From positions 1-51,673 of IMG/VR virus record IMGVR_UViG_3300045020_000143: a stretch of DNA of 51,673 nucleotides; one strand, written 5' to 3'. Source of the DNA: a virus. The notes beneath the pieces are model-generated. The model was not told the origin of the DNA. It saw only the letters and a program-made list of their open reading frames with translations, and searched no databases. Both the position numbers and the translations under genes were made by a program. Each line of letters opens with the position of its first letter. Positions within the stretch are counted from its first letter, which is position 1. Shown here in pieces: positions 13,387 through 44,505 of this stretch.

Positions 13387-13403
13387 TGCCACAGTCTTAT
13401 GCC
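13387..13403 (-). promoter_or_regulatory. 17-nt GGSATAAG element, copy A
   Basis: On the minus strand this reads GGCATAAGACTGTGGCA. The same element occurs at 20683-20699, 36573-36589 and 39678-39694, each time just upstream of a minus-strand gene. Here it lies 28 bases before the TTG start at 13358 and heads the long replication operon. It is a candidate phage promoter or operator; TSS mapping would decide. Confidence 0.6.
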
Positions 13404-13423
13404 AAGGAACTGTCCTTCCTTGG
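13402..13423. repeat. Inverted repeat in the divergent control region
   Basis: Perfect 8-bp arms (CCAAGGAA and TTCCTTGG) with a 6-nt spacer, overlapping the upstream edge of element A. It is placed where a dimeric regulator could control leftward transcription. No role is proven. Confidence 0.55.
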
Positions 13424-16409: not shown

Positions 16410-16939
16410 ATCGAGCAATGACCCTCGCCTTCATGGACGAGATGTCCAAGATCGCTGAGTCCAGGGCCAAGACGAAGAAGGCCGGCTTCATGGCCAACGT
16501 TGGCAACCGCATCACCAGCAACGTCGCTGGAGCGGGAGCGAACATCGGAGGAGCTCTTCACCAGATGTTCTCCCACCCAATCCAAGGCCTCACCCGAGGC
16601 GCCAAGGAGACCGTCACCGGATTGAAGGGACACCCTTGGCTGACCGCAGCCATCTTGGGAGGAACGGCTCTCGGCATCCACGACCTGAGCAAGCCTGTCG
16701 ACCCCACAGGCGCCGGCCGCAGTCGGGCTCATCGGACGGCTGAGTTCGTGGGTGATCAAGCCGGCGGTCTGATCGGAGCTCCATTCGGCTTCGCTGGAAG
16801 CATCGCCGGCGGAATGATGGGCAAGAAGATTGGCGACTTGGCTGGCAAGACCATCGACAAGGTTCGTGGCTACAAGCGGACTCCTGCTATGGTGCAAGAA
16901 GCTCCCGCTGCCGCTGAGTCCATGAGGTCCGCACAGTGA
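16406..16939 (+). CDS. Small virion-region protein with F-x-DEM tag
   Basis: 177 residues from a GTG overlapping the previous stop. Residues 9-17 are FMDEMSKIA, the tag shared with three other proteins. The remainder is Gly/Ala-rich with two hydrophobic stretches (WLTAAILGGTALGIH and GLIGAPFGFAGSIAGGMMG), reminiscent of membrane-active or internal head proteins. It overlaps the portal start by GTGA. Function unknown; co-translation with the portal suggests a head protein. Confidence 0.7.
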   Translation: MNRAMTLAFMDEMSKIAESRAKTKKAGFMANVGNRITSNVAGAGANIGGALHQMFSHPIQGLTRGAKETVTGLKGHPWLTAAILGGTALGIHDLSKPVDPTGAGRSRAHRTAEFVGDQAGGLIGAPFGFAGSIAGGMMGKKIGDLAGKTIDKVRGYKRTPAMVQEAPAAAESMRSAQ

Positions 16940-18999
16940 GTTTCGACAACCTGGCTCTAGGCTTCGGCGGTACTTCACGCTTTGCCGGCCAGCGTGGAAG
17001 AACAGCAGACGGGACAAGCCGAAGTGGCATTCGGTATCCCTCGCCCTTCTTCGACATCGGTCACACCTACCTGCCGCCTTCGGTCAAGGCGCTGCTCAGG
17101 TGGTGCCGGTACTACTACCTGGTCAATCCACTCATCAACTCGGTCATCCACAAGATGTCCGAGTACCCCATCACGGAAATCGTGATCGATGAGAAGGACC
17201 CCAAGATTCGTGGGAAGTGGGAGGAGCTTCTCGGCCAGCACCTGCGGTACCGAGCATTCCAAATCGAGTGCGGCCTCGACTACTACACCTACGGCATCTG
17301 CCTGGTGACGGTGCACTTCCCCTTCACGAAGTACCTCATCTGCCGGCACTGCAAGCACAAAGAGAAGGCCGCCAAGATGGAGTACAAGTGGCGGAACCTC
17401 GACTACATCATTGCGTGCGACAAGTGCGGCCTGGTCTCGCCGGCGCTGGTCCAGGACTTCTACGAGAGAGACATCCGCCGCATCCGTCTGCAGCGGTGGA
17501 ACCCCGAGTACGTCAACGTCGATCCGGGCTTCGGTGGAGCTGACCCGACCTACACCTTCGAGCTGCCTCTCCAGCTCCGCAACGACCTCCTCCTCGGCAA
17601 GAAGAACGTCCTCGACACCATCCCGGACGTCTTCGTGGAGGCGATGAAGAGGAACAAGTTCATTGCCTTCTCACCAGAGAACGTCTTCGTCCTGAGACGG
17701 CCCATCATCTCCCAGAAGGATGAGGGATGGGGGATGCCCCTCATCTTCCCGGTCCTCAAGGACACCTTCTACCTGCAGATCCTCCGCAAGGCTCAGGAGG
17801 CCATTGCCCAAGAGCACATCGTTCCTCTTCGGGTTCTCTTCCCCCAGGCAGGCAGTGCCACTTCGGATCCGTACACCACGATCAACCTCGATCAGTGGAA
17901 GACGCGGATGGAGAACGAGATTGCGAAGTGGAAGTACGACAACAACTACATCCCCATCCTGCCGCTGCCCATCGGCAACGAGACCATCGGCGGTGACGGT
18001 CGGGCTCTCATGCTCCACCAGGAGATGCAGGCTTGGTCGGACCAAATCGTGGCCGGCATGGGTGTGCCGAGAGAGTTCGTCTTCGGTGGCCTGACCTACT
18101 CCGGCTCGAACGTCTCGATGCGGATGGTCGAGAACATGTTCATCGGGTACCGCACCGACCACGAGAACATGCTGAACCAGTTCGTCATCCGGCGCATCGC
18201 CAACTTCATGGAGTGGCCGACGACCACGGCCCACATGCGCCGGTTCAAGATGGCGGACGACCTGCAGAGGGCCGCCCTCATCTTCCAGGCGAACCAGGCC
18301 ATGAAGGTGTCCGACCAGACCTTCCTCACCGAGCTGGACATGGATCCGGCTGTCGAGGAGCAGCGCCGCAACGCTGAGCTCGACAAGAGCCTCAAGTTCC
18401 AAGAGAAGATGCAGATCGCCCAGGCCCACGTTCAGGCCGAGGTTGCCGGCATCACAGCGAAGGCGCAGGCCGAAGCTGCTCAGCAGATGGCTCAGGCGAT
18501 GCCTGGCCAGGTGGGAGAGGGCGCCCCTCCAGGCGCTGGAGCAGAAGGTGGAGCGGATGCTCCTGGGGCAGAGGGTGGCCAACCTGGAATGCCCGGAGCA
18601 GAGGGCGGGGCTCAGACCGGCCAAGAGGGTGAGATGCAGGCCGGCGAAGACGTGATGCCAGGGATGCCGGCAGGTTCCACCGTCTCGGCGGAGAACGCTC
18701 AGGGAGCACCACAAGATGGCGTCCCACAGGCCGCGATGAGCCCACTCACCTTGGGTCAAAAGGGTGGGGGAGCGAACCTCATCTACATGGCCAAACGAGC
18801 GGCAGCTCAGCTCCAAAAGATGGATCCGCTGAACAAGATGATGGAGCTGAACAAGATGAAAGGTGCGAACCCTCAGCTCTACAGCATCGTCATCCAGATG
18901 ATGAACGAGTCTCAGGGCTCACAGGCAAATCCGCTCGACCCAATGCAGAGCCCGATGCCAACACAGAAGCCTTCCCGCCGCGTAGCTCAAGTGGGATGA
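16936..18999 (+). CDS. Portal protein with zinc-ribbon insertion
   Basis: A 687-residue protein consistent with a portal, the dodecameric ring for DNA entry. Features that fit are the early PPSVKALLRWCRYYYLVNPL helix, the mixed core, NVFVLRRPI followed by a stem-like region with GMPLIFPVLKD, and AGMGVPREFVFGG with NVSMRMVEN. The tail, from about residue 500, is a long Ala/Gln/Gly/Met-rich extension. Residues C136/C139 and C161/C164 form two CxxC pairs 22 residues apart, a zinc ribbon that portals normally lack. The GTG start overlaps the previous gene. The call rests on pattern and length, so it is strong but not absolute. Confidence 0.8.
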   Translation: MSFDNLALGFGGTSRFAGQRGRTADGTSRSGIRYPSPFFDIGHTYLPPSVKALLRWCRYYYLVNPLINSVIHKMSEYPITEIVIDEKDPKIRGKWEELLGQHLRYRAFQIECGLDYYTYGICLVTVHFPFTKYLICRHCKHKEKAAKMEYKWRNLDYIIACDKCGLVSPALVQDFYERDIRRIRLQRWNPEYVNVDPGFGGADPTYTFELPLQLRNDLLLGKKNVLDTIPDVFVEAMKRNKFIAFSPENVFVLRRPIISQKDEGWGMPLIFPVLKDTFYLQILRKAQEAIAQEHIVPLRVLFPQAGSATSDPYTTINLDQWKTRMENEIAKWKYDNNYIPILPLPIGNETIGGDGRALMLHQEMQAWSDQIVAGMGVPREFVFGGLTYSGSNVSMRMVENMFIGYRTDHENMLNQFVIRRIANFMEWPTTTAHMRRFKMADDLQRAALIFQANQAMKVSDQTFLTELDMDPAVEEQRRNAELDKSLKFQEKMQIAQAHVQAEVAGITAKAQAEAAQQMAQAMPGQVGEGAPPGAGAEGGADAPGAEGGQPGMPGAEGGAQTGQEGEMQAGEDVMPGMPAGSTVSAENAQGAPQDGVPQAAMSPLTLGQKGGGANLIYMAKRAAAQLQKMDPLNKMMELNKMKGANPQLYSIVIQMMNESQGSQANPLDPMQSPMPTQKPSRRVAQVG

Positions 19000-20555: not shown

Positions 20556-20648
20556 CTACCCCTCCGCGAATCGGTACCACATGCTGAAGAGTCTATCGAC
20601 CACGTACGACAACGCGTACGTGAAGAGGCTCCACAAGAAGAGCTTCAC
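20556..20648 (-). CDS. 30-aa membrane-type micropeptide
   Basis: GTG start at 20648 preceded by AGAAGGAG, stop TAG directly abutting the next ATG. The product begins MKLFLWSLFTYALSYVV and ends in a charged DRLFSMWYRFAEG, so it is probably a single-span or amphipathic peptide. Too short for statistical proof; the ribosome binding site, precise junction and element B 35 bases upstream make it credible. Confidence 0.5.
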   Translation of the reverse strand: MKLFLWSLFTYALSYVVDRLFSMWYRFAEG

Positions 20649-20682
20649 TTCTTCTCCTTCTGAGTTGAAAGACAGCCTTTGT

Positions 20683-20699
20683 CTCTACACTCTTATCCC
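20683..20699 (-). promoter_or_regulatory. 17-nt GGSATAAG element, copy B
   Basis: Minus strand GGGATAAGAGTGTAGAG, 35 bases upstream of the GTG at 20648 that opens the zinc microprotein island. It matches copies A, C and D over the GG-ATAAG core and the following T-TAG. Candidate promoter or operator. Confidence 0.6.
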
Positions 20700-20720
20700 A
20701 AAGAAACCATTAGGCTTTGA

Positions 20721-20750
20721 TTGACCACCTGTCTTGCGGTCCTGTACCTT
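20721..20750 (+). promoter_or_regulatory. Weak candidate promoter upstream of RNA polymerase gene
   Basis: TTGACC at 20721-20726 and TACCTT at 20745-20750 with 18 bases between, in the 196-base gap before the polymerase gene. The leader that would result is about 90 bases and contains no other recognisable element. Low confidence. Confidence 0.3.
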
Positions 20751-20844
20751 TGGACTGACCGACAAGGCTCAAGAACCTCTTCTGTGCAACAGGTAGAGCC
20801 CCGGTTGTCGTTCTCTAGCTTCGCCGCACAGGGTGAGGACCAAA

Positions 20845-23800
20845 GTGGATCTGCTGACGCCCGAGAAGTCTTTCGAGAACCTCAAGACCGACGTTCTCAA
20901 GGCGATTCAATCCCACTTCCCCTACGAGGGCCGGCGTCAGAGCGTGCAGCTTGGGAACCTCCGAGTCGAGGACAAGCTCAGCCAGGATGACATCCACAGC
21001 CAGGCAGAGGTCAAAGACAAGGATGGCACCTGGGGTGTGCCCATTCGTGGTGACCTGACACTCATCGACAAGAACACTGGGAAAGTCGTCGACACGAAGA
21101 AGAACGCTGTCCTGGCTCGTCTCCCCAAGCTCACCAACCGTTACAGCTTCATCGTCAACGGCAGTGAGTACCAGATCGATCACCTCTTCCGGCTGAAGTC
21201 GGGTGCCTACGCTCGCATCCAGAGGAACGGTGACCTGGAGACGGAGTTCAACCTCTCCAACCCCAGTCGTCTGGCCGGGGACAACTTCTCGGTGAAGCTG
21301 GACCGGGAGAACAAGAAGTTCTCCCTGAAGTACGGCGACGCTCACATCCCTCTCTACCCAATCCTCAAGAGCATGGGCGTCTCTGACGAACAGCTCGAAC
21401 ACGATTGGGGCAAGGCCATCTTCGAGGCCAACAAGCCGAAGAACGACAAGAAGATGCTGTCGGGCCTGCACAGCTTCTGGAAGCGGACCGTGGAAGATCC
21501 AGAGGGCCCACGGCCCCATGACGTTGGGGACTACGGGAAGTACGTCCACAGCCTCTTCTCCAAGACCACCATCCGCCCTGACACGACGGCGCTCACCCTG
21601 GGCAAGCCCTTCACCACTGTGAACGGTGACGCTCTGGCGATTGCAGCCAAGAAGATTCTCGGCATCTCCCGTGGCGAACAGAAGCCGGACGATCGGGACA
21701 GCTTGGCCTTCAAGGAGATTGTCTCCGTCGAGGACTTCATCCCAGAGAAGATCAACAAGGCCGAGCGGAGCATCCGCCACCACATCCGGAAGAACGTCGA
21801 CCACAAGCTGAGCGTGGGCGACATCGTCTCTCCCGATCTCTTCAACCGCCCCATCCACGAGTTCTTCACCAAGGGTGGCTCGGTGGCGGAGCGGTCGGAT
21901 CAGACGAACCCCATTCAGATGCTGTCGGAGAGTCGCAAGACGACTCTGATGTCCAAGGACTTCGGTGGCATCAAGGGCGACCACAACCTCACCACCGAAA
22001 TGCAGGTGGTGAACCCCAGCCACTTCGGGTTCCTCGACCCGATGCACACCCCGGAGTCGGAGCGCACTGGCATCACTCTCCACCTCTCAGCGAACGCCAG
22101 GAAGAACGGCAAGGACCTGGAGACACCGGTCTACGACGTAGCCACCGGCAAGATTACCCACATGCCGGTCATCAAGTTCCATCAGGCGATGGCCGTCCTA
22201 CCGGACCAGGTGAAGTGGGTGGATGGGAAGCCGGTCCCCATCGCCAAGATGGTGAAGGTCAAGCTGCCAGGTGGGGACATCGAGGAGCGACCGTTCACCG
22301 AGGCCGGGTACGTCATGCCCTCCTCCAAGGGTCTCTTCGACTACGCCTCGAACCTCATCCCCTTCCTGCCCACCGACCAGGGCAACCGCGTCTCGATGGC
22401 GGACAAGCAGTTGGAGCAGGCCATCTCCCTGAAGCACAGGGAGGCTCCCTTCGTTCAGTCGAAGACCGATGCTGAGGACCCGACTCACACCTTCGAGAAG
22501 GTGGTGGGTCAGACCGTCACGACCAACGCCCCAGTGAGTGGCAAGGTCACCAAGGTTGGGAAGGACACCATCACCATCGGTGAGGGGAAGGACGCAAAGG
22601 TCGTCCAGCTCTACAACCACTTCCCGCTCAACGACCCCAAGGGAATGATGCACTCCCTGCCCATCGTCCATGAGGGTGAAGAGGTCAAGAAGGGTCAGGT
22701 CATCGCCGACAACAACTTCACGGCCAAGGGTGTGCTGGCCGTGGGGACCAACCTTCGGGTCGGCTACATCCCCTACAAGGGCTACAACTTTGAAGACGGC
22801 ATCGTAATCTCCGACAGCGCAGCCAAGAAGCTGACCTCGGAGCATCTCTACAAGAAGGATCTGGAGCTGGACCCGACCAATGACACGGTCTCCAAGTCCA
22901 AGTTCAAGGCCTTCTCCGTTGTGAAGTCCCAGCAGATGTCCAAGGAGCAATGGGACAACATCGACGATGACGGGGTCATCAAGCCTGGAACTCGGGTGAA
23001 GCCAGGTCAGGTTCTCATTGCGGCCTTGGGGAAGAACACGACCACCCGTCAGGGTCACGCCCTCGCTGCTCTGGGCAAGAGAGCCTTCAGTCCCTGGAAG
23101 AACAAGAGCCTGACTTGGGACGAAGACCACGAGGGTGTGGTCACCAAGGTGGTTCGCTCACCCAGCGACAAGAACATCCGCGTCTACGTGAAGACTGAAG
23201 AGCCGGCGGTGGTCGGCGACAAGCTCACTGGCCGTCACGGCAACAAGGGCATCATCACCCGAATCCTTCCCGACCACGAGATGCCCCACACCCTGGACAA
23301 CGGGGAGAAGAGGCACCTGGAGGTCCTGCTCAATCCCTCAGGAGTCCCGACCCGTATCAACGTCGGCCAGATGTTGGAGACAGCCGCTGGGAAGATTGCG
23401 GAGAAGACCGGCAAGACCTACGTCGTGAACAACTTTGCTGGCCCGGACCACGACTACCGCCAGCAGGTGATGGATGACCTGAAGAAGCACGGTCTCAGTG
23501 ACGAGGAGACCGTCTACGATCCCCACGACGTCCGGAAGCCGTTGGGTTCGGTCCTGGTTGGACCCCAGTACATCCTGAAGCTCAAGCATCAGGTCGAGAA
23601 GAAGCTCACTGCCCGTGGTGGTGGGACTTCAGTTGAAGGGCGTGGCCTGCCCTATGACGCGGACAGGCAACCGAGGAAGGGCGGTCAGCACGGAGGTCAG
23701 GGCTTCGGTCAGCTCGACATCTATACCCTGCTTGGTCACAACGCCCGCCACAACATCCGAGAGATGGCGACGTACAAGTCGGACATGCAGGATGCGACCT

Positions 23801-26800
23801 TCTGGTCCATCGTGCAGCAGGGAGATCCAATCCCTCCGCCACGCATCCCCTTCAGCTACCAGAAGTTCACCTCTCTGCTTCAGGGCCTGGGGGTCAACGT
23901 CTCGAAGGACGGAACGGCTGTTCGACTCCTGCCGATGACGAACAAGGAGATCCTCCACCTCGCCGGCAATGGAAGGAACGAAATCAAGGAAGGCAACAAG
24001 ACCATCATCTCGAAGAACCTGAAGCCCGAGGCCGGAGGGCTCTTCGACATCCACGCCACTGGTGGAATGGATGGAGACAAGTGGGCCTTCATGAAGCTCA
24101 CCGAGCCCGTCCCCAATCCCATCTTCGTGGGTCAGAACAACCGTCCAGGCCCAGTGCCCGTGTTGCTTGGACTGAAGATGTCCGAAGTCGACGACATCAT
24201 GTCTGGCAAGAGGAACCTGGAGGGGAAGGTCGGAGGAGCTGGAATCGAAGCAGCCCTCAAGAAGATCGACGTTCCCAAGGAGATTGCTGCCCTCAAGGCT
24301 GAACTGCCGCATCTCGGTGGTACGACGCTGGACCGGGCCAACAAGAAGCTGAAGTACCTTCTGGCTCTGAAGGACGCTGGGCTGCAGCCACATGAGGCCT
24401 ACATCCTCCACAACATCCCGGTCATCCCGCCCAAGTTCCGACCGGCCATTCCGACCGCCAAGGGCGACATCAACTACGGTCCCCTCAACGGCCTCTATAA
24501 GAACATCGCTCTGCTCAACGGCAAGCTGAAGGATCGCATCAAGGAGCTGGGTGAGGAGCATCAACACCCGGTTCGAGCTCAGCTCTGGGACGCTGTGAGA
24601 GCTCTGGAGAGCATCGGCAACTACAAGCCGGTGTACGACGTGGACTCCAGTGGCAATCGGGAGCTGAAGGGCATCCTGGACATCATCGGGGGCGGCACTG
24701 GAGAGCAGCCGAAGGAAGGCTACTTCCAGAAGCACCTGGTGAAGCGCCGGCAAGACCTGTCCATTCGATCCACCGTCATCCCAGAGCCGGCCATGGGCAT
24801 CGACGAGGTGGGTCTCCCACGGCATGCGGCGATGGAGCTCTACAAGCCCTTCGTCGTAGCCCAGCTTGGGAAGTGGAGTGTGGATCCGCTTCGCGCTCAG
24901 GAAGAGATCAAGAAGGACACGCCTTTGGCCTTGAAGGCACTCGAAGCGGCTGTCGAGGACAGGCCCATCATCCTCAAGCGTGACCCAGTTCTCCACAAGT
25001 TCTCAGTCATGGCCTTCAAGCCCAAGATCATCGAGGGCAAGGCCATCCAGATCCATCCGCTGGTGACCGGTGGGTTCAATGCCGACTTCGACGGCGACAC
25101 GATGGCCGGCACTGTGCCGATGTCCCAGGAGGCCGTGGAGGAGGCTCGGAACATGTTCCCCTCCAAGAACCTCTACAGTCCGACGACCGGTCAGGTCATG
25201 TACGGTCCGAGCCAGGAGTCCCTCCTCGGTCTGCACATGCTCTCGAAGTGGGGCAAAGACTCCGGCAAGACATATGACTCGGTCACCAGCCTCTCAAAGG
25301 CTGTGGACAAGGGAGAGATTCACGTCTCGGATCCGGTTCGGGTGAAGGGGCTCTTCGGTGGGAAGCCGACAACGTTCGGTCGGATCCTGATTGAGTCCCG
25401 CCTCCCACGAGGCTTCAAGCACAGCTCGGAGATTCTCCACAGCCCCGAGTTCGAGGCGACCAGCAAGACCCTCAGCGGGAAGATCACCCCGCTCCTGGCC
25501 TCTGCTCACACCGAGGACTTCGCCAAGTCCATCAATGAACTCAAGGACTTGGGCAACGAGTACTCCTACAAGCTGGGGTTCTCCATCGGCCTCAAGGACC
25601 TGGCTCCGTTGAAGGAGCGAGGTGCCATCCTGGCTGCCGCCCACGCGAAGGCGGATACAGCCAAGAAGATCACCAACAAGGACGAACGCGACAAGGCTCT
25701 GGTCAACATCTACACCGACGCCACGAACCAGATCGACGAGGCCACCAAGAAGGCCCTCTCCGGCAGCAGCAACCGTTTGGCCCAGATGGTCTTCTCTGGA
25801 GCCAGAGGAAAGCCTGGTCAGCTCAGGCAGATGATTGCGGCCCCGATGCTGATGCAGGACTCCACCAACAGGACCATCCCTGTCCCGGTGACGAAGTCCT
25901 ACTCCGAAGGTCTGGACATCGGCGACTACTGGTTGGCCCAACACGGGGCCAGAAAAGGCACCCTACAGCGAGCTCAGGGAACCAGAGACCCTGGTGCCAT
26001 CTCGAAGGACATCCTCAACTCGACGATGGCCACTCTCATCGTCTCCAACGATTGCGACACCCATCAGGGGCTCCTGATGGACATCAACCACAAGGACCTG
26101 CACGATCGATACACCTCAGCCCCCTACAAGCTTCGGGACGGGACCGTCATCAAGGCTGGGACCCTGGTGACTCCAGAGATCTCCTCCCGTCTTCGGAACA
26201 ACAAGATCGACAAGGTGATGGTCCGTTCTCCGCTCAAGTGCGAGCACGGGGACGGCATCTGTGCGAAGTGCTTCGGCCTCAACGAGAACGGAAAGCTCCA
26301 CGACGTGGGTACCAACATTGGGGTCCTGGCTGGTCAGGCCCTCGGTGAGCCGGCAGTTCAGATGGCCATGGATGCCTTCCACTCGGGTGGCATCGCCTCT
26401 TCAGAACGCGGAGCCAAGTCAGTCGACCGCTTCACCCGTCTCAAGACTCTCTTGGAGATGCCAGAGACGATTCGAGATCAGGCCACCATCGCGATGGCCA
26501 CTGGGAAGATCGAAGACATCAAGAAGGACCCAGTCGGTGGTCTCGACATCTTCATCAACGGTCTGAAGCACCTGGTTCCGAAGCACCTCATCAGCGACAA
26601 GATCAAGCCAGGCATGGAGATGAAGAAGGGGGAGCCTCTGTCTGAGGGCCACATCAACCCCCACCACCTTCTCAATGCCACCAAGGACATCCATGCAGTC
26701 CAGAACCATCTCGTGAGAGAGATGCAGGAGGGTCTGTACGAGAAGGAGGGTGTGCGCCGGCGCAACGTCGAGGTGGCAGTTCGTGCCGTCACGAACCTCA

Positions 26801-27126
26801 CCAAGGTCAAGGACCCAGGGAGTAGCGACCACTACCACGGGGACATCTTGCCCAGGACTGAGGTCGAGGAGTTCAACCGGAACCTGCCCAAGGGTGCGAA
26901 GCCCATTGAGCATGATCCCATCTTGAAGGGTGTGAGAGAGATTCCATCTCTCATCTCGAAGAACTGGATGGCCCGTCTCAACTACCAGCGGCTGTCTTCA
27001 ACCATTCAAGACGCAGCGGCAGAGGGGTGGAAGGCAGAGATGCACGGCTCTCACCCCATCCCCGGCATTGCCATGGGGAGCGAGTTCGGCAAGGCACCAG
27101 CAGGTAAGTCGAAGCACGTATACTAG
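20845..27126 (+). CDS. Single-chain RNA polymerase, beta and beta-prime fused
   Basis: Catalytic core of a multisubunit-type RNA polymerase in one 2,093-residue chain (GTG at 20845 with GAGG six bases upstream; a GTG at 20833 adds four residues). The beta half has an N-terminal FIVNGSEYQIDHLFRLKSGA, the rifampicin-region QTNPIQMLSESR followed by NPSHFGFLDPMHTPES, GYNFEDG at 646, GDKLTGRHGNKG (796-802 for the last part), NPSGVPTRINVGQ, and GGQHGGQGFGQ. The junction is near residue 1030. The beta-prime half has LVKRRQDLSIRSTVI, the catalytic NADFDGD at 1412-1418 (D1414, D1416, D1418), bridge helix SGARGKPGQLRQ from 1651, trigger loop HGARKGTLQRA, and zinc cysteines C1737, C1799, C1806, C1809. 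The N-terminal beta-prime zinc ribbon is absent. No alpha, omega or sigma gene is visible. It lies among late virion genes, so it may be packaged. Confidence 0.97.
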   Translation: MDLLTPEKSFENLKTDVLKAIQSHFPYEGRRQSVQLGNLRVEDKLSQDDIHSQAEVKDKDGTWGVPIRGDLTLIDKNTGKVVDTKKNAVLARLPKLTNRYSFIVNGSEYQIDHLFRLKSGAYARIQRNGDLETEFNLSNPSRLAGDNFSVKLDRENKKFSLKYGDAHIPLYPILKSMGVSDEQLEHDWGKAIFEANKPKNDKKMLSGLHSFWKRTVEDPEGPRPHDVGDYGKYVHSLFSKTTIRPDTTALTLGKPFTTVNGDALAIAAKKILGISRGEQKPDDRDSLAFKEIVSVEDFIPEKINKAERSIRHHIRKNVDHKLSVGDIVSPDLFNRPIHEFFTKGGSVAERSDQTNPIQMLSESRKTTLMSKDFGGIKGDHNLTTEMQVVNPSHFGFLDPMHTPESERTGITLHLSANARKNGKDLETPVYDVATGKITHMPVIKFHQAMAVLPDQVKWVDGKPVPIAKMVKVKLPGGDIEERPFTEAGYVMPSSKGLFDYASNLIPFLPTDQGNRVSMADKQLEQAISLKHREAPFVQSKTDAEDPTHTFEKVVGQTVTTNAPVSGKVTKVGKDTITIGEGKDAKVVQLYNHFPLNDPKGMMHSLPIVHEGEEVKKGQVIADNNFTAKGVLAVGTNLRVGYIPYKGYNFEDGIVISDSAAKKLTSEHLYKKDLELDPTNDTVSKSKFKAFSVVKSQQMSKEQWDNIDDDGVIKPGTRVKPGQVLIAALGKNTTTRQGHALAALGKRAFSPWKNKSLTWDEDHEGVVTKVVRSPSDKNIRVYVKTEEPAVVGDKLTGRHGNKGIITRILPDHEMPHTLDNGEKRHLEVLLNPSGVPTRINVGQMLETAAGKIAEKTGKTYVVNNFAGPDHDYRQQVMDDLKKHGLSDEETVYDPHDVRKPLGSVLVGPQYILKLKHQVEKKLTARGGGTSVEGRGLPYDADRQPRKGGQHGGQGFGQLDIYTLLGHNARHNIREMATYKSDMQDATFWSIVQQGDPIPPPRIPFSYQKFTSLLQGLGVNVSKDGTAVRLLPMTNKEILHLAGNGRNEIKEGNKTIISKNLKPEAGGLFDIHATGGMDGDKWAFMKLTEPVPNPIFVGQNNRPGPVPVLLGLKMSEVDDIMSGKRNLEGKVGGAGIEAALKKIDVPKEIAALKAELPHLGGTTLDRANKKLKYLLALKDAGLQPHEAYILHNIPVIPPKFRPAIPTAKGDINYGPLNGLYKNIALLNGKLKDRIKELGEEHQHPVRAQLWDAVRALESIGNYKPVYDVDSSGNRELKGILDIIGGGTGEQPKEGYFQKHLVKRRQDLSIRSTVIPEPAMGIDEVGLPRHAAMELYKPFVVAQLGKWSVDPLRAQEEIKKDTPLALKALEAAVEDRPIILKRDPVLHKFSVMAFKPKIIEGKAIQIHPLVTGGFNADFDGDTMAGTVPMSQEAVEEARNMFPSKNLYSPTTGQVMYGPSQESLLGLHMLSKWGKDSGKTYDSVTSLSKAVDKGEIHVSDPVRVKGLFGGKPTTFGRILIESRLPRGFKHSSEILHSPEFEATSKTLSGKITPLLASAHTEDFAKSINELKDLGNEYSYKLGFSIGLKDLAPLKERGAILAAAHAKADTAKKITNKDERDKALVNIYTDATNQIDEATKKALSGSSNRLAQMVFSGARGKPGQLRQMIAAPMLMQDSTNRTIPVPVTKSYSEGLDIGDYWLAQHGARKGTLQRAQGTRDPGAISKDILNSTMATLIVSNDCDTHQGLLMDINHKDLHDRYTSAPYKLRDGTVIKAGTLVTPEISSRLRNNKIDKVMVRSPLKCEHGDGICAKCFGLNENGKLHDVGTNIGVLAGQALGEPAVQMAMDAFHSGGIASSERGAKSVDRFTRLKTLLEMPETIRDQATIAMATGKIEDIKKDPVGGLDIFINGLKHLVPKHLISDKIKPGMEMKKGEPLSEGHINPHHLLNATKDIHAVQNHLVREMQEGLYEKEGVRRRNVEVAVRAVTNLTKVKDPGSSDHYHGDILPRTEVEEFNRNLPKGAKPIEHDPILKGVREIPSLISKNWMARLNYQRLSSTIQDAAAEGWKAEMHGSHPIPGIAMGSEFGKAPAGKSKHVY

Positions 27127-32331: not shown

Positions 32332-32577
32332 ATGAACGTCGCAGGTTGGATCGCATTCGATGACGAGCTGAAGAAGATCTCCGCTGACCTGACGGCGGCC
32401 GGTCGGGACAAGATCAAGTCCAAGAACTTCGCCGAGCCGAAGAAGCGGGCCTACCCCATCGAGGACCCAGCCCACGCTCGGAACGCTCTGGCCCGGGTCA
32501 GTCAGTTCGGCAGCCCGGGTGAGAAGTCCCAGGTTCGAGCCAAGGTGCACGCCAAGTACCCGGGCATCGGCAAGTAG
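32332..32577 (+). CDS. Small tagged protein with C-terminal HARNALARV domain, 81 aa
   Basis: Residues 9-17 read FDDELKKIS, the shared signature. From residue 30 it carries a compact domain found in many phage proteins, recognised here by KNFAEPKKRAYPIEDPAHAR and RNALARVSQFG ending in KVHAKYPGIGK. I recall this as a domain of unknown function that often accompanies phage ligase, protease or head genes; that memory is not verified here. GGAG lies upstream of the ATG. Confidence 0.75.
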   Translation: MNVAGWIAFDDELKKISADLTAAGRDKIKSKNFAEPKKRAYPIEDPAHARNALARVSQFGSPGEKSQVRAKVHAKYPGIGK

Positions 32578-32587
32578 CGAGCTCGGC

Positions 32588-33982
32588 ATGGCCCAGAAGG
32601 ACTACGCCCCTGGCCTGCCGAGCAAGAAGCGGTATGGAGATCTCTCCAAACTCCGAGCTGGGCAGTTCGTAGACTTCATCGTTCAACGCCACAAGGCGGA
32701 GCGAGCTGGAGAGCACTACGACGTTCGGCTGGGCACGCCTGAGACTGGACTCTTCTCCTGGGCTACGAAGAAGGAGCTCCCCAAGCCAGGCGAGCGCCGA
32801 GCTCTCTTCCAGCAACCTCTGCACCGTCACGAGTACGGTCAGTTCGAAGGAGAGATTGCGGAGGGCTACGGCAAGGGAACGGTGGAGAAGGCCCAGGAGG
32901 GTCGACTCTTCGTCACCAAGATCACCCCCAAGTCCATCCACTTCTCGATGGCGCACAAGAAGGTCCCGGAGCGGTTCGTTCTTCTTAGCCCTCGTCCGGG
33001 ACGTGGAGAGTCCCCAGAGAAGGGCAACTCCAAGCAGTGGCTGCTCCTCAACACCACCCCGACCAAGCCCGTTCCCTACAACAAGGTCCACTACAAGAAG
33101 GTGTCGCCGGAGAAGGCCGAGGCAGTCCTGGACAATCTCCAGCCTGGGAGCTCAGTCCAGGCGAAGATTGATGGGGCTGCAGCCCTCGTGAAGTTGATGG
33201 AGGACAAGGCGGAGATCATGTCCTATCGGGTGGCCAAGCAGACCGGCCATCCCATCATCCACACTGAGCGGGTCTTCAAGGGCCCAGCCACGGTCTCCAT
33301 TCAGAAGGAGTACGTAGGGACAGTCCTTCGTACGGAGCTCTACGGAACCAGGAATGGCAAGACCATCCCACCCCAAGAGCTGGGTGGCATTCTGAACTCA
33401 GCCCTAGAGAAGTCCGTCGAGACCCAGAAGGAGCGTGGCATCGAGCTCAAGAACCTGGTCTTCGACATCCAGAACATCGGGAAGAAGTCGACCAAGGGTC
33501 TGCCCTACGCCAAGAGGATGGAAATCATCAAGGAGCTCATCAGCCATTTGCCGTCCAGCCGCTTCGGTCTCCCAGAAGAGGCCACGACTCCGGAGGCGGC
33601 GAAGAAGCTGCTCAAGCGGATTGGCTCTGGCAAGGAGCCACTCACTCACGAGGGCATCGTCATCCACCCGGCGGAGGGCAAGCCGTCCAAGGTGAAGTTC
33701 ATGGACGAGCACGACGTCCACATCACTGGCTTCTTCCCAGCCGAAGGCAAGTACAAGGACCGAGCGATTGGGGGCTTCACTTACGCTCTCAAGCCTGATG
33801 GCCCAACGGTGGGCAAGGTGGGGACTGGGTTCTCTGATGAACTGCGTCGTGACATGTACCTGAACCCACAGGACTACATTGGTCGGGTGGCGAAGATCCG
33901 AGCTCAAGACCAACACAAGTCTGGAGCTTTCAGAGCCCCTGCCCTATTGTCGCTCCACGAGGACTACCCCACACGCAGGTGA
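32588..33982 (+). CDS. LigD-like phosphoesterase-DNA ligase fusion
   Basis: A 464-residue two-domain repair enzyme. Residues about 25-110 match the LigD 3'-phosphoesterase domain: H35 and H43 with YDVRL (D45, R47), SWATKKELPKPGERRA, and LHRHEYGQFEG, corresponding to the second His/Tyr cluster. The ligase domain follows: nucleotide-binding AKIDGAAALV with K193 as the probable AMP-attached lysine, TERVFKG, LRTELYG, LVFDIQNIG, HEGIVIHP and KVKF, then an OB-fold (GGFTYALKPDG). The PE-to-LIG order is that of bacterial LigD without its polymerase domain. It would trim 3' ends and seal breaks. The His spacing (x7 instead of x5) is unusual. It sits among virion genes, away from the replication block. 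Confidence 0.85.
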   Translation: MAQKDYAPGLPSKKRYGDLSKLRAGQFVDFIVQRHKAERAGEHYDVRLGTPETGLFSWATKKELPKPGERRALFQQPLHRHEYGQFEGEIAEGYGKGTVEKAQEGRLFVTKITPKSIHFSMAHKKVPERFVLLSPRPGRGESPEKGNSKQWLLLNTTPTKPVPYNKVHYKKVSPEKAEAVLDNLQPGSSVQAKIDGAAALVKLMEDKAEIMSYRVAKQTGHPIIHTERVFKGPATVSIQKEYVGTVLRTELYGTRNGKTIPPQELGGILNSALEKSVETQKERGIELKNLVFDIQNIGKKSTKGLPYAKRMEIIKELISHLPSSRFGLPEEATTPEAAKKLLKRIGSGKEPLTHEGIVIHPAEGKPSKVKFMDEHDVHITGFFPAEGKYKDRAIGGFTYALKPDGPTVGKVGTGFSDELRRDMYLNPQDYIGRVAKIRAQDQHKSGAFRAPALLSLHEDYPTRR

Positions 33983-36572: not shown

Positions 36573-36589
36573 TCCTAGAGCCTTATCCC
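36573..36589 (-). promoter_or_regulatory. 17-nt GGSATAAG element, copy C
   Basis: Minus strand GGGATAAGGCTCTAGGA, only 9 bases before the ATG at 36563 and partly overlapping its AGGAGG. It also forms a short dyad, GCCTTA and TAAGGC. If it is a promoter the leader would be very short; an operator role is also possible. Confidence 0.5.
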
Positions 36590-36889
36590 CTAAGGCTTCT
36601 CGTTCTTGTCTGGGCCCAATCGACGCTTGGTTCCTATCGAAATGAACAGAGCTGTGTCTCCAGCTTCGACCTTTCCTTCGGGTACTGCGTCGTTCTTGTG
36701 AGCCCAAATCTGGAAGAGATTCCAGATGTCGTTCTTGACTTTGCCATTCACCGGGTCCTGCCACTTCACTCGAAGCGTGTACACGAGCGGATTCACAGAT
36801 GCTCTAAGGTCATAGATGATCTGTTGACCCAGAGCTCTGCTCGTGGATTCCGCGAACTCACTCAACCAAATCAGGGGTGGAGGGGTCAT
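36590..36889 (-). CDS. Hypothetical protein, 99 aa, complete copy of a duplicated start
   Basis: The first 33 residues (begin MTPPPLIWLSEFAEST) closely match the 34-residue frame at 37220-37324: about 27 of 33 aligned residues agree by my count, and about 73% of bases. The remainder, VKWQDPVNGKVKNDIWNLFQ and a C-terminal acidic/basic end, has no match upstream. Function unknown. Start overlaps the endonuclease stop by ATGA. It looks like the intact gene that the nearby truncated frame once resembled. Confidence 0.7.
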   Translation of the reverse strand: MTPPPLIWLSEFAESTSRALGQQIIYDLRASVNPLVYTLRVKWQDPVNGKVKNDIWNLFQIWAHKNDAVPEGKVEAGDTALFISIGTKRRLGPDKNEKP

Positions 36890-39677: not shown

Positions 39678-39694
39678 CTCTACGACCTTATGCC
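39678..39694 (-). promoter_or_regulatory. 17-nt GGSATAAG element, copy D
   Basis: Minus strand GGCATAAGGTCGTAGAG, 42 bases upstream of the ATG at 39635. It follows the stop of the HTH regulator gene at 39717 and so can start a separate transcript for the membrane protein. It is the fourth copy of the element. Confidence 0.6.
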
Positions 39695-39716
39695 GAGGCA
39701 GTCTGTCGAATTGCAG

Positions 39717-42191: not shown

Positions 42192-42841
42192 TGAACTCGA
42201 CCGACTTCTTGAAGCTCGCCAGCCTGGTCAAGCCAGAGCTGATCGAGAAGACCGCCAAGGCTCTGGCAGCCCTGGAGTTGGTGTCCCCTGAGCACGCCAA
42301 CGAGTTGAAGGCGGAGATGGACGCCATCATAGCCCGTCCTCTCCAGCTCATGGAGAAGAACGCCGGCGCCGCTTCCGCCATCGCGAGTGCCTACGGGAAG
42401 GTTCCCCAAGGCGTGAAGACCGTGGCCGTCTTGGGAGTCGGTTCGGCCCTGGCCGGGTTGGGCAGTTCCATCGCCACTGACCTCTATGACGCCGCCCGCC
42501 GGAAGTTCACCAGTGGCCGCAACTTCAAGCGGATCATGGACGCCAACCCGGAGCTCTCGAAGGGATTCGACAAGAAGCAGTTGAAGGCGACCTTCGACAC
42601 CCTCCACCGGTACGCTCCCGACTTCACCGCCGATGCGCTCATGGGTGGAAGCCTTCTCTCCGCCATGGCCCAGGTGCCCGGCAACGAGAAGAACTTCATC
42701 GTGGAGCTCATCAACAGCCGCAAGAACCTGGCGGATGCCAAGTCGAAGCAGTACTCGCCGGCGCACTTCCCCCTCAAGGACGTCAAGGACCTCTACCAGG
42801 GCAAGAAGACAGGCCCGTCACCCCACTACTCTGAAGGATGA
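42191..42841 (+). CDS. Hypothetical virion-region protein, 216 aa
   Basis: Start fixed by TGATG with the previous gene. Helical with a hydrophobic central stretch (VKTVAVLGVGSALAGLGSSI) that could span or insert in a membrane, then a charged helical domain (FKRIMDANPELSKGFDKKQL). Its stop overlaps the next ATG by ATGA. Probably an assembly or internal head protein given the surroundings. Confidence 0.65.
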   Translation: MNSTDFLKLASLVKPELIEKTAKALAALELVSPEHANELKAEMDAIIARPLQLMEKNAGAASAIASAYGKVPQGVKTVAVLGVGSALAGLGSSIATDLYDAARRKFTSGRNFKRIMDANPELSKGFDKKQLKATFDTLHRYAPDFTADALMGGSLLSAMAQVPGNEKNFIVELINSRKNLADAKSKQYSPAHFPLKDVKDLYQGKKTGPSPHYSEG

Positions 42842-44505
42842 TCGAGAAGCAGTGCACCTTCTTCGGTAGGACCGAGTCCGGCATCTTCTGTCAGGCCCTG
42901 TTTGGAAGCGCCGGGGTCTTTGAGAAGACAGCCGGTGCGCCAGCCTTTGCCAACTGGGACACTGGGGACCACCTCCGGAAGTACATCAAGACCATCACCA
43001 AGGAGGACCGGAAGAAGTACTGCTACACCCTGGTGAACGCTCTTGGCGCCGGCGAGTACTTCGGCTCCAACATCAACGCCGACTTCTTCCCCTGGGATGC
43101 TCTGACCCACGAGGGGGAGGACTACGGCTACAAGACGTTCGAGTACTTCGCTCACGCCTTTCAGCACCACAAGAACAAGGATCCCTCCCGGGCCTTCGGT
43201 GTCCCTGTCCTCTCCATCCTGAACCACCCGATGAAGCGGGTGGAGCTCATCGTCAGACTGAATCGAGAGAAGGCCAAGACCGAGGGTGCAGACGGCATCA
43301 TCACCCGGATCGACGCCGGGGACTTCCCAGACGTGTCGATGGGCTGTCGGGTTCCCTACGACGTCTGCTCCATCTGCCACCACAAGTCCAAGACGAAGGA
43401 CGACTACTGCGACCACATGCGACCGCCGGAGGAGCTCCGGCACATCTATGGACCCAATCGGATCCTCTTCGACGGTCGGAAGATCTTCGTCTACAACTTC
43501 ACCCCCAAGTTCTTCGACATCTCTTTCGTCTTCATCGGGGCAGACAAGACTGCCAAGGTCATGGCGAAGCTCGCTTCTCGTGGACCTCAGCTATGCCTGG
43601 GTGATGTGTGCACTCTCGACAAGCCTTCTGCTGATATTGCTGCGGAGGCCGGGCCTCGTACTGACTGGATTAGCCCGAGCTCTCTCCAGAAGGTGGCGGC
43701 GGTCGAGGGGTGCGGATGTGGGTGTGAAGGAGAGAAGTGCTTCGGGAAGACCGCCTCCCAGAAGCTGAGCGCCATCATCAAGCAGATCCCAGCCGGGTCG
43801 TTCTCCATTCGTCGGCTCCAAGACGTCGAGAGGGCTGAGCCAGGCATCCCCGACAAAGCCTTGGATTCAATGGCAGAACACCCACTGCCCAAGGTCCTGG
43901 GCGCCATGACGGTGATGGGGATCATCCTCCGGCCACCCGAGTTCCAGAGGGTCGTCCTGAAGCGAATGGGGGAAGACGAACTGGCAGACGACTTCTCTCG
44001 CTCCCAGAAGGTTTTCTCCCCGACATCATCTTTCTCTCCTGCCTCGGTCGACACGGACTCGAAAGACGTCGCCCAGACTCTTCTTCCACTTCTCTCCAGC
44101 CTCATCAAAGAGAGAACTGCCTTTGGGGGACCCTTTCAGATCAGGGTCACAATTGCTGGTGGAGGGCACAAAATCCCTCTTCCCACACCAACTCCTGTCG
44201 AGCATCCTTTACTGGACAAGATCAGCGCGGCCTACAATGGGTATCGCCGTGAACTCTTGATGAAGCTCTCGCAGGCAACAGAGGTGGTTGAAAGCGACCC
44301 TCAGTTGAGGGAGACGGTGCTCGGAGACGGACTGGTGAACATGTTCTCAAAGCAAGCCAGCTCGACCCCGACACTCTCCATCGACTCGATGGCGTACTTG
44401 ATGGGCGCGTACCTCGAAGACCGTGGCCTGTTGTCCAACACCGGTGTTGCGACAGCAATGGCGGTGTCAAACCCCAGTCTCCTCGCCGAGGAGCAAACGG
44501 CCTAG
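42838..44505 (+). CDS. Prohead-protease-like protein, 555 aa
   Basis: Candidate head-maturation serine protease. The N-terminal 260 residues contain NALGAGEYFGSNINADFFPW, a His-bearing VLSILNHPMKRVELIVRLNR, GIITRIDAGDFPDVSMGCRV (putative nucleophile in VSMG, compare the S-x-G of U35 proteases), and then CSICHHKSKTKDDYCDHM, a likely zinc-binding loop. A second Cys cluster (GCGCGCEGEKCFG) lies near residue 300. The C-terminal half is helical and may act as scaffold. Similar architectures occur in proteases of other large myoviruses as I remember them; this needs a profile search. It precedes scaffold-like genes and the capsid gene, as expected. Confidence 0.65.
   Translation: MIEKQCTFFGRTESGIFCQALFGSAGVFEKTAGAPAFANWDTGDHLRKYIKTITKEDRKKYCYTLVNALGAGEYFGSNINADFFPWDALTHEGEDYGYKTFEYFAHAFQHHKNKDPSRAFGVPVLSILNHPMKRVELIVRLNREKAKTEGADGIITRIDAGDFPDVSMGCRVPYDVCSICHHKSKTKDDYCDHMRPPEELRHIYGPNRILFDGRKIFVYNFTPKFFDISFVFIGADKTAKVMAKLASRGPQLCLGDVCTLDKPSADIAAEAGPRTDWISPSSLQKVAAVEGCGCGCEGEKCFGKTASQKLSAIIKQIPAGSFSIRRLQDVERAEPGIPDKALDSMAEHPLPKVLGAMTVMGIILRPPEFQRVVLKRMGEDELADDFSRSQKVFSPTSSFSPASVDTDSKDVAQTLLPLLSSLIKERTAFGGPFQIRVTIAGGGHKIPLPTPTPVEHPLLDKISAAYNGYRRELLMKLSQATEVVESDPQLRETVLGDGLVNMFSKQASSTPTLSIDSMAYLMGAYLEDRGLLSNTGVATAMAVSNPSLLAEEQTA

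What the first reader, a model, noticed from the sequence alone, without database searches (positions are those of the whole stretch)
20845..27126. Full-length beta/beta-prime RNA polymerase fused into one phage protein
One uninterrupted frame contains, in order, nearly all recognisable beta motifs (GYNFEDG, GRHGNKG, NPSGVPTRINVGQ, GGQHGGQ) and beta-prime motifs (NADFDGD triad, bridge helix, trigger loop, second zinc site). The phiKZ-type phage polymerases I know are split over several shorter proteins, and natural beta-beta-prime fusions are known mainly in Helicobacter and Wolbachia. A complete, alpha-less single-chain enzyme in a myovirus-like genome is rare or undescribed to my knowledge. 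Its place between virion genes suggests it could be injected with the DNA.
Basis: partly seen in the sequence, partly recalled or inferred. Interest (0 to 1): 0.95.

Follow-up and report, generated by a model that had tools for sequence, protein, structure and literature searches.

The report
Phage RNA polymerase in one chain
A large tailed phage encodes a complete bacterial-type RNA polymerase as one 2,093-residue protein; hundreds of uncultured phage contigs carry the same or a closely related enzyme, a relative's version is abundant in virus particles, and the gene has its own RNA leader and a recurring promoter family nearby.

Summary
Window 20845-27126 (+) is one open frame with a full beta chain (both catalytic lysines) joined without a linker to a full beta-prime chain (NADFDGD, bridge helix, trigger loop, zinc site 2). 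Only the beta-prime N-terminal zinc ribbon is missing, cut out in the whole family. It is not an assembly error: at least 71 distinct IMG/VR contigs carry it as one frame, and one scan matched 341 relatives. The family is a phage clade apart from bacterial enzymes; cellular beta-beta-prime fusions arose separately. Cultured relatives (Salmonella phage Arash, Vibrio phage D69) keep the fusion but have beta-prime cut in two. No alpha homologue was found in the related records searched. In Arash virions the orthologue is the most-detected protein, so packaging is likely. Two additions: (1) a covarying pseudoknot leader directly before the start codon; (2) a fixed-spacing promoter, [CA]AA-N16-GGNATAAG, 7-25 copies per genome, almost all on the strand opposite the polymerase gene, probably serving early genes. 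The enzyme is neither rare nor clearly mReC, but the single-chain architecture, leader and promoter were not described in the literature I could search. Promoter recognition by this enzyme, and packaging of this exact protein, are inferred.

The parts
20845..27126 (+). Gene for the single-chain RNA polymerase, 2093 aa, start GTG 20845
20845..23904 (+). Beta-like part, residues about 5-1024 of the 20833 frame; holds DPBB-B with K797 and K805
   Evidence: Pfam Rpb2_3/6/7; alignment to Salmonella beta
23893..23922 (+). Beta / beta-prime junction without a linker domain, residues about 1021-1030
   Evidence: alignment strip; AF2 model of residues 505-1690
23905..27123 (+). Beta-prime-like part
   Evidence: Pfam Rpb1_1 to Rpb1_5; AF2 model of residues 955-2097 matches bacterial beta-prime with TM 0.83
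24058..24081 (+). Site of the deleted beta-prime zinc ribbon (zinc site 1); GLFD..GDKW replaces the cysteine loop
25078..25098 (+). NADFDGD catalytic aspartate triad (DPBB-A)
25906..26013 (+). Bridge helix
26053..26271 (+). Zinc site 2: C1741, C1803, C1810, C1813
26359..26412 (+). Trigger loop (Q1843, M1846, H1850; the usual Arg933 is Asp1847 here)
20762..20838 (+). Covarying leader RNA: outer stem 20766-20770/20796-20800, inner stem 20775-20780/20788-20794, pseudoknot 20782-20787 (CUGUGC) with 20826-20831 (GCACAG), which abuts the Shine-Dalgarno sequence
20692..20718 (-). Phage promoter AAA-N16-GGGATAAG, divergent from the polymerase gene
13396..13422 (-). Phage promoter CAA-N16-GGCATAAG, upstream of a minus-strand gene
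36582..36608 (-). Phage promoter CAA-N16-GGGATAAG, 18 nt before an ATG preceded by a Shine-Dalgarno sequence
39687..39713 (-). Phage promoter CAA-N16-GGCATAAG, 15 nt before an ATG
16936..18999 (+). Portal protein gene, upstream of the polymerase as in Arash
   Evidence: PHROG 2833; 30% identical to Arash gp204

Best explanation
It is a self-contained DNA-dependent RNA polymerase of a widespread lineage of large (about 130-210 kb) tailed phages. Beta and beta-prime, which touch at their C- and N-termini in bacterial enzymes, are one polypeptide, so the core forms within one molecule and need not rely on the alpha dimer that holds the two subunits together in bacteria. Shown by sequence and models: a complete catalytic core, the fusion, loss of the beta-prime zinc ribbon, no alpha homologue found in related records. 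Inferred: the protein is packed in the virion and enters the cell with the DNA, as suggested by Arash virions. Inferred: with a phage sigma or another specificity factor it starts transcription at the [CA]AA-N16-GGNATAAG promoters in front of the minus-strand (replication and other presumably early) genes. Inferred: later synthesis of the polymerase is tuned at translation by the pseudoknot leader that sits against its ribosome-binding site.
For: All catalytic residues are invariant in 43 of 43 members. AF2 models: residues 505-1690, spanning both double-psi barrels and the junction, mean pLDDT 87.8 and pTM 0.78; residues 955-2097, pLDDT 87.5 and pTM 0.84, TM 0.83 to bacterial beta-prime. Single frame in at least 71 distinct contigs; one polymerase locus of this kind in each of 15 long IMG/VR contigs of 134-210 kb that carry the fused form. 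No alpha N-terminal domain (PF01193) in any of 20 phage records, while 13 of 14 control genomes rang. Arash orthologues gp206 and gp216 gave 3516 and 1210 spectra in virions against 1333 for the major capsid protein, and a sigma factor (gp10) gave 467 (PMC10585845). Promoter: 4 perfect copies in the window, 0.02 expected, 0 of 100 shuffles; 96 copies on the strand opposite the polymerase gene against 4 on the same strand in 8 genomes, reversed-pattern control 1 in 10 genomes (polymerase strands); 3 of 3 Arash copies lie just upstream of a gene start. Leader: 86% of cells paired against at most 42% when slid; covariation score 0.357 against at most 0.105 slid, 0 of 500 shuffles reach it.
Against: Nobody has made the protein or tested activity. 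Virion evidence is from a relative about 32% identical whose beta-prime is split, and that preparation held 116 proteins including nucleotide-metabolism enzymes, so carry-over is possible. A sigma-like gene passes the cut-off in only 5 of 20 records, and the clamp-helix positions that bind sigma in bacteria are changed (R275, E295 and others), so the specificity factor in this subclade is unknown. The promoter could be read by host polymerase. The whole chain could not be folded in one job. The record is a fragment, so alpha elsewhere in this particular genome is not excluded.
Confidence: 0.7

Rival explanations
1. The enzyme is a non-virion polymerase made during infection for middle or late genes; host polymerase starts infection and reads the GGNATAAG promoters.
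For: The gene lies on the structural-gene strand with its own leader, and the GGNATAAG promoters are almost only on the other strand. Arash virion preparations contained many non-structural proteins.
Against: In Arash the two polymerase pieces are at or near capsid level in spectra. Only one polymerase locus of this kind per long contig carrying the fused form. The promoter differs from the sigma-70 consensus (one search finds no consensus sigma-70 site at 20560-20860).
Confidence: 0.17
2. The chain works only as part of a hybrid with host alpha, omega or sigma.
For: The overall beta and beta-prime architecture is close to bacterial, with a flap-tip-like segment kept.
Against: Sigma-binding positions of the clamp helices are not conserved, the fusion tethers the two halves without alpha, and other phage enzymes (phiKZ, AR9) work without alpha (PMC7598289).
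Confidence: 0.08
3. The chain is cut after synthesis, for example by the head maturation protease, into beta and beta-prime, so the fusion is only a way to express both in equal amounts.
For: A head-maturation-protease-like gene is in the window (42838-44505), and in D69 and Arash beta-prime occurs in two pieces.
Against: The junction has no linker and lies in a confidently modelled region. D69 and Arash break inside beta-prime, not at the junction.
Confidence: 0.08
4. The frame is an assembly or annotation artefact joining two genes.
For: None.
Against: Same single frame in at least 71 distinct contigs from many metagenomes.
Confidence: 0.005

Closest known systems
Salmonella phage Arash gp206 + gp216 and Vibrio phage D69 / D148 / D181 polymerases
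   Same: Same clade, same beta-beta-prime fusion, same zinc-ribbon deletion, portal just upstream
   Different: Beta-prime is split after the catalytic barrel into a second gene; small genes or homing endonucleases sit between. About 30-33% identical
mReC phages (Weinheimer and Aylward 2020, PMC7481178)
   Same: Tailed phages with recognisable beta and beta-prime forming a clade apart from cells
   Different: The paper describes beta and beta-prime as subunits and mentions fusion only for crAssphage. mReC capsids match PF07068, not found in this family. A metagenome that gave mReC1 and mReC3 contains both a two-polymerase separate-subunit phage and a fused one
phiKZ / AR9 virion and non-virion polymerases (PMC7598289)
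   Same: Bacterial-type core without alpha
   Different: Split over four or five proteins, two enzymes per phage, much more diverged
crAss-like phage phi14:2 gp66 and Thermus phage P23-45 gp96 / gp64 (PMC10770324)
   Same: Single-chain two-barrel phage polymerases; gp66 and gp96 are virion enzymes
   Different: Reduced or hardly recognisable by sequence; this one keeps nearly the whole bacterial beta and beta-prime
Cellular beta-beta-prime fusions (Helicobacter and Wolbachia, from memory; Omnitrophota and others)
   Same: Fusion at the same junction
   Different: The ones examined nest inside bacteria and keep zinc site 1; independent events

Membership tests
Two-barrel (bacterial-type) RNA polymerase core | DxDGD triad in one double-psi barrel, two lysines in the other | tested here: met
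   43 of 43 family members
Two-barrel (bacterial-type) RNA polymerase core | Bridge helix and trigger loop | tested here: met
   R780, Q929, H936 equivalents invariant; models
Two-barrel (bacterial-type) RNA polymerase core | Polymerase activity | not testable with these tools
   needs purified protein
Bacterial RNA polymerase (alpha2 beta beta-prime omega) | Alpha subunit encoded with it | tested here: not met
   PF01193 in 0 of 20 phage records, 13 of 14 controls positive
Bacterial RNA polymerase (alpha2 beta beta-prime omega) | Beta-prime zinc site 1 | tested here: not met
   deleted in the family
phiKZ / AR9 polymerases | Beta and beta-prime split over several proteins, two enzymes per genome | tested here: not met
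   one chain, one locus
crAss gp66 type | No detectable sequence match to COG0085/COG0086 profiles (as PMC7481178 reports) | tested here: not met
   strong Pfam matches to Rpb1 and Rpb2 domains
mReC | Beta and beta-prime of phage origin in a clade apart from cells | tested here: met
   trees; archaea not included
mReC | Major capsid protein of family PF07068 | tested here: not met
   no match in the window, the fused-family contigs or D69, Arash and L022; present in the separate-subunit phage G028. The paper detected this family in only 8 of 97 contigs, so the test is weak
mReC | Listed among the published 97 contigs | not testable with these tools
   supplementary data not available
Virion RNA polymerases | Present in virions | not testable with these tools
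   only by published proteomics of the relative Arash (PMC10585845)

The most novel reading that the evidence does not exclude
A complete, portable phage transcription system: a one-polypeptide, alpha-free, bacterial-type RNA polymerase carried in the virion, with its own promoter class ([CA]AA-N16-GGNATAAG) for early genes and a pseudoknot leader controlling its own synthesis. It would be, to my knowledge, the first near-full-size bacterial-type polymerase working naturally as one chain without alpha.
Probability: 0.4. Interest if true: 0.88.

Novelty: new variant of a known kind. Interest (0 to 1): 0.74.

Why it matters
All cellular RNA polymerases need an assembly platform (alpha or its equivalents) to bring the two big subunits together. 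A natural enzyme with nearly the entire bacterial beta and beta-prime in one chain shows how that need can be dropped, gives structural biologists a single-gene bacterial-type polymerase, and makes a testable system because the relative Arash grows on a laboratory Salmonella strain. The leader RNA and promoter class give direct handles on how such phages time their genes.

Tried and rejected
Assembly error: rejected. Origin from a known cellular fusion: rejected; the fused Omnitrophota-type enzymes and the Pseudomonadota one (L089) sit inside bacteria. Rfam match for the leader: none. Sigma-70 consensus promoter at 20560-20860: none called, although a TTGAC-N17-TGTA-like block upstream is conserved. 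Sigma gene as a constant partner: not found in most close relatives. PF00940 (T7-type polymerase) search was uninformative because no control rang. Rhizobium phage RHph_TM30 beta-prime as a query found no IMG/VR relatives. Minimum-free-energy folds of the leader are not better than shuffles (nested-only folding cannot see the pseudoknot), so the case rests on covariation. The D69 copies of the promoter motif are not convincing (two of three lie inside genes; the third was not checked).
Full report
What is there. The frame 20833-27126 (+) is open for 2097 codons. A Shine-Dalgarno-like sequence at 20832-20838 and the starts of the homologues put the real start at GTG 20845, giving 2093 aa. Pfam gives Rpb2 domains 3, 6, 7 and then Rpb1 domains 1-5 in the right order. 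Mapped on the Salmonella subunits, all the main catalytic residues are present and invariant across 43 family members, including the aspartate triad, both active-site lysines, the bridge-helix Arg and the trigger-loop His. The junction is seamless: the last beta segment (LLQGLGVNV) runs on after about five residues into the beta-prime start. The one large loss is beta-prime zinc site 1: the loop with four cysteines is replaced by a few residues in the fused members, in D69, Arash and G026; it is kept in all bacteria and in two of the three separate-subunit phage enzymes (G020b, G028b) and in Carin-5. Zinc site 2 is kept in 41-42 of 43. The bacterial sigma-binding positions of the clamp helices are not kept (R275, I291, E295, R297). 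Several positions of the rifampicin pocket differ (Q513 to E, H526 to E, R529 to K, I572 to T), so resistance is predicted, not shown.

Structure. Two AF2 jobs on alignments of 38 family members: residues 505-1690, which hold both barrels and the junction (pLDDT 87.8, pTM 0.78), and residues 955-2097 (pLDDT 87.5, pTM 0.84). Foldseek places the second on bacterial beta-prime over its whole length (TM 0.83) and the first on beta-prime over about 790 columns (TM 0.50; PDB chains are single subunits, so the beta half of that model is not scored). The complete chain exceeded the length limit and was not modelled.

How widespread. IMG/VR scans returned 182 and 341 relatives by tblastn. At least 71 distinct contigs hold both barrels in one frame (some run off a contig end). 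Fifteen long IMG/VR contigs of 134-210 kb with the fused form each hold one such locus (in G010, G012 and G013 it appears as two neighbouring matches of one frame). Larger frames of 2391-3012 aa carry in-frame inserts; in L008 these match LAGLIDADG and intein models. Lineage L173/L111 reads as one 2019-aa frame if TGA is Trp; two of its five TGA codons fall on Trp residues also seen in the window and relatives.

Evolution. In three trees the fused phage enzymes plus D69/Arash form a group apart from bacteria (SH-aLRT 82 in the fast tree, 99 in the last mixture-model tree; rooted on bacteria, archaea not included). Cellular fusions lie inside bacteria and are independent. D69, Arash and G026, with beta-prime cut in two, sit inside the fused phage group, so by parsimony full fusion came first and the cut later. 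Phages with two separate-subunit polymerases (G020, G028) are a different branch. All trees used the quick method, so long branches (Carin-5, G020a) are placed with little certainty.

Relation to published work. Weinheimer and Aylward (PMC7481178) reported 97 contigs with phage beta and beta-prime. The text mentions fusion only for crAssphage. Their capsids matched PF07068 (found in 8 contigs); that family is absent from the fused phages tested and present in a separate-subunit phage. One of their source metagenomes (3300017989) contains both types, so overlap is unresolved. A 2026 review of jumbo phages (PMC13282480) does not mention a single-chain full-length enzyme in the passages found. 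The Arash paper (PMC10585845) calls gp206 beta and gp216 beta-prime and does not comment on the fusion in the passages read; it reports gp206 as the most-detected virion protein.

Partners. No alpha N-terminal domain was found in 20 phage records. Sigma region 2 passes the cut-off in Arash, D69, L022 and two fused-family contigs, not in the window or its closest relatives. So the specificity factor of this subclade is open. Arash virions contain the sigma-like gp10.

Neighbourhood. The window is a whole 51,673-base IMG/VR record, a fragment. Minus strand: DNA polymerase A, DnaG-like primase, DnaB-like helicase, uracil-DNA glycosylase, a ResIII/DEAD-type helicase, RNase HII. Plus strand: portal, the polymerase, an ATP-dependent ligase with a LigD 3'-phosphoesterase domain, large terminase subunit, head-maturation-protease-like protein, major head protein. 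Portal upstream of polymerase is shared with Arash and D69.

Leader RNA. Just upstream of the start codon, eleven relatives share two nested stems and a pseudoknot between the hairpin loop and the bases next to the Shine-Dalgarno sequence. 86% of cells pair; covariation 0.357 against at most 0.105 with slid partners; 0 of 500 shuffles reach it. I named the pseudoknot from the same sequences, so the cells-paired figure is partly by construction; the compensatory changes are less so. A covariance model without the pseudoknot finds the leader in front of this gene in the close clade, and in two contigs not used to build it (L286 E 8e-5; L289 E 0.004). No Rfam family matches. Translational control of the polymerase is the simplest reading, untested.

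Promoter. Aligning 38 GGNATAAG sites of twelve close records without gaps brought out AA at -18/-17 (33 and 35 of 38), positions not used for selection. The joint pattern [CA]AA-N16-GGNATAAG occurs four times in the window, all on the minus strand (0.02 expected), and 7-25 times per genome in eight related contigs, 96 copies on the strand opposite the polymerase and 4 on the same; the reversed pattern occurs once in ten genomes. Two of these genomes (G006, G007) were outside the discovery set. In Arash 3 of 3 copies lie just upstream of a gene. Window copies at 36582, 39687 and 13396 lie 15-31 nt from plausible starts. Its link to this polymerase is by co-occurrence only.

Shown, inferred, open. 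Shown by computation: the single chain, the complete core, the wide family, the zinc-ribbon loss, the leader, the promoter-like motif. Inferred: packaging (from Arash), early transcription, promoter recognition, autoregulation. Open: specificity factor, host, activity.

Noticed in passing
window 13396-13422, 20692-20718, 36582-36608, 39687-39713 (-): Phage-wide promoter class [CA]AA-N16-GGNATAAG, mostly on one strand in each genome, upstream of minus-strand genes in the window.
   Followed up: yes
window 20762-20838 (+): Covarying pseudoknot leader RNA in front of the polymerase gene, not in Rfam.
   Followed up: yes
L173, L111 (IMGVR_UViG_3300025602_000002, 3300000172_000001): Related phage whose polymerase frame has five in-frame TGA and no other stops: TGA probably read as Trp.
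   Followed up: partly
L008/L289, L286, L270, L272, L252, L281, L268: In-frame inserts in the polymerase at or near conserved motifs (after DFDGD, near GRHGNKG, trigger loop); LAGLIDADG and intein signatures in L008.
   Followed up: partly
L508 (G027): Polymerase in several genes, one of which begins with a sequence like an intein C-terminus (VYDITVADLHNF): possible split intein.
   Followed up: no
L500, L501, L502, L503 (G020, G028): Phages with two different polymerases, mostly with separate beta and beta-prime genes; possibly the type behind mReC1.
   Followed up: partly
L026, L027, L028, L029, L032, L035, L089: Beta-beta-prime fusions in MAGs labelled Omnitrophota, Vermiphilus and Proteobacteria, independent of the phage fusion.
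   Followed up: partly
window about 20721-20746 (+): Conserved TTGAC-N17-TGTA-like block upstream of the leader, possibly the polymerase gene's own promoter; not a consensus sigma-70 site.
   Followed up: no
window 32519-33982 (+): Protein joining a LigD 3'-phosphoesterase domain to an ATP-dependent ligase, present in few relatives at this place.
   Followed up: no
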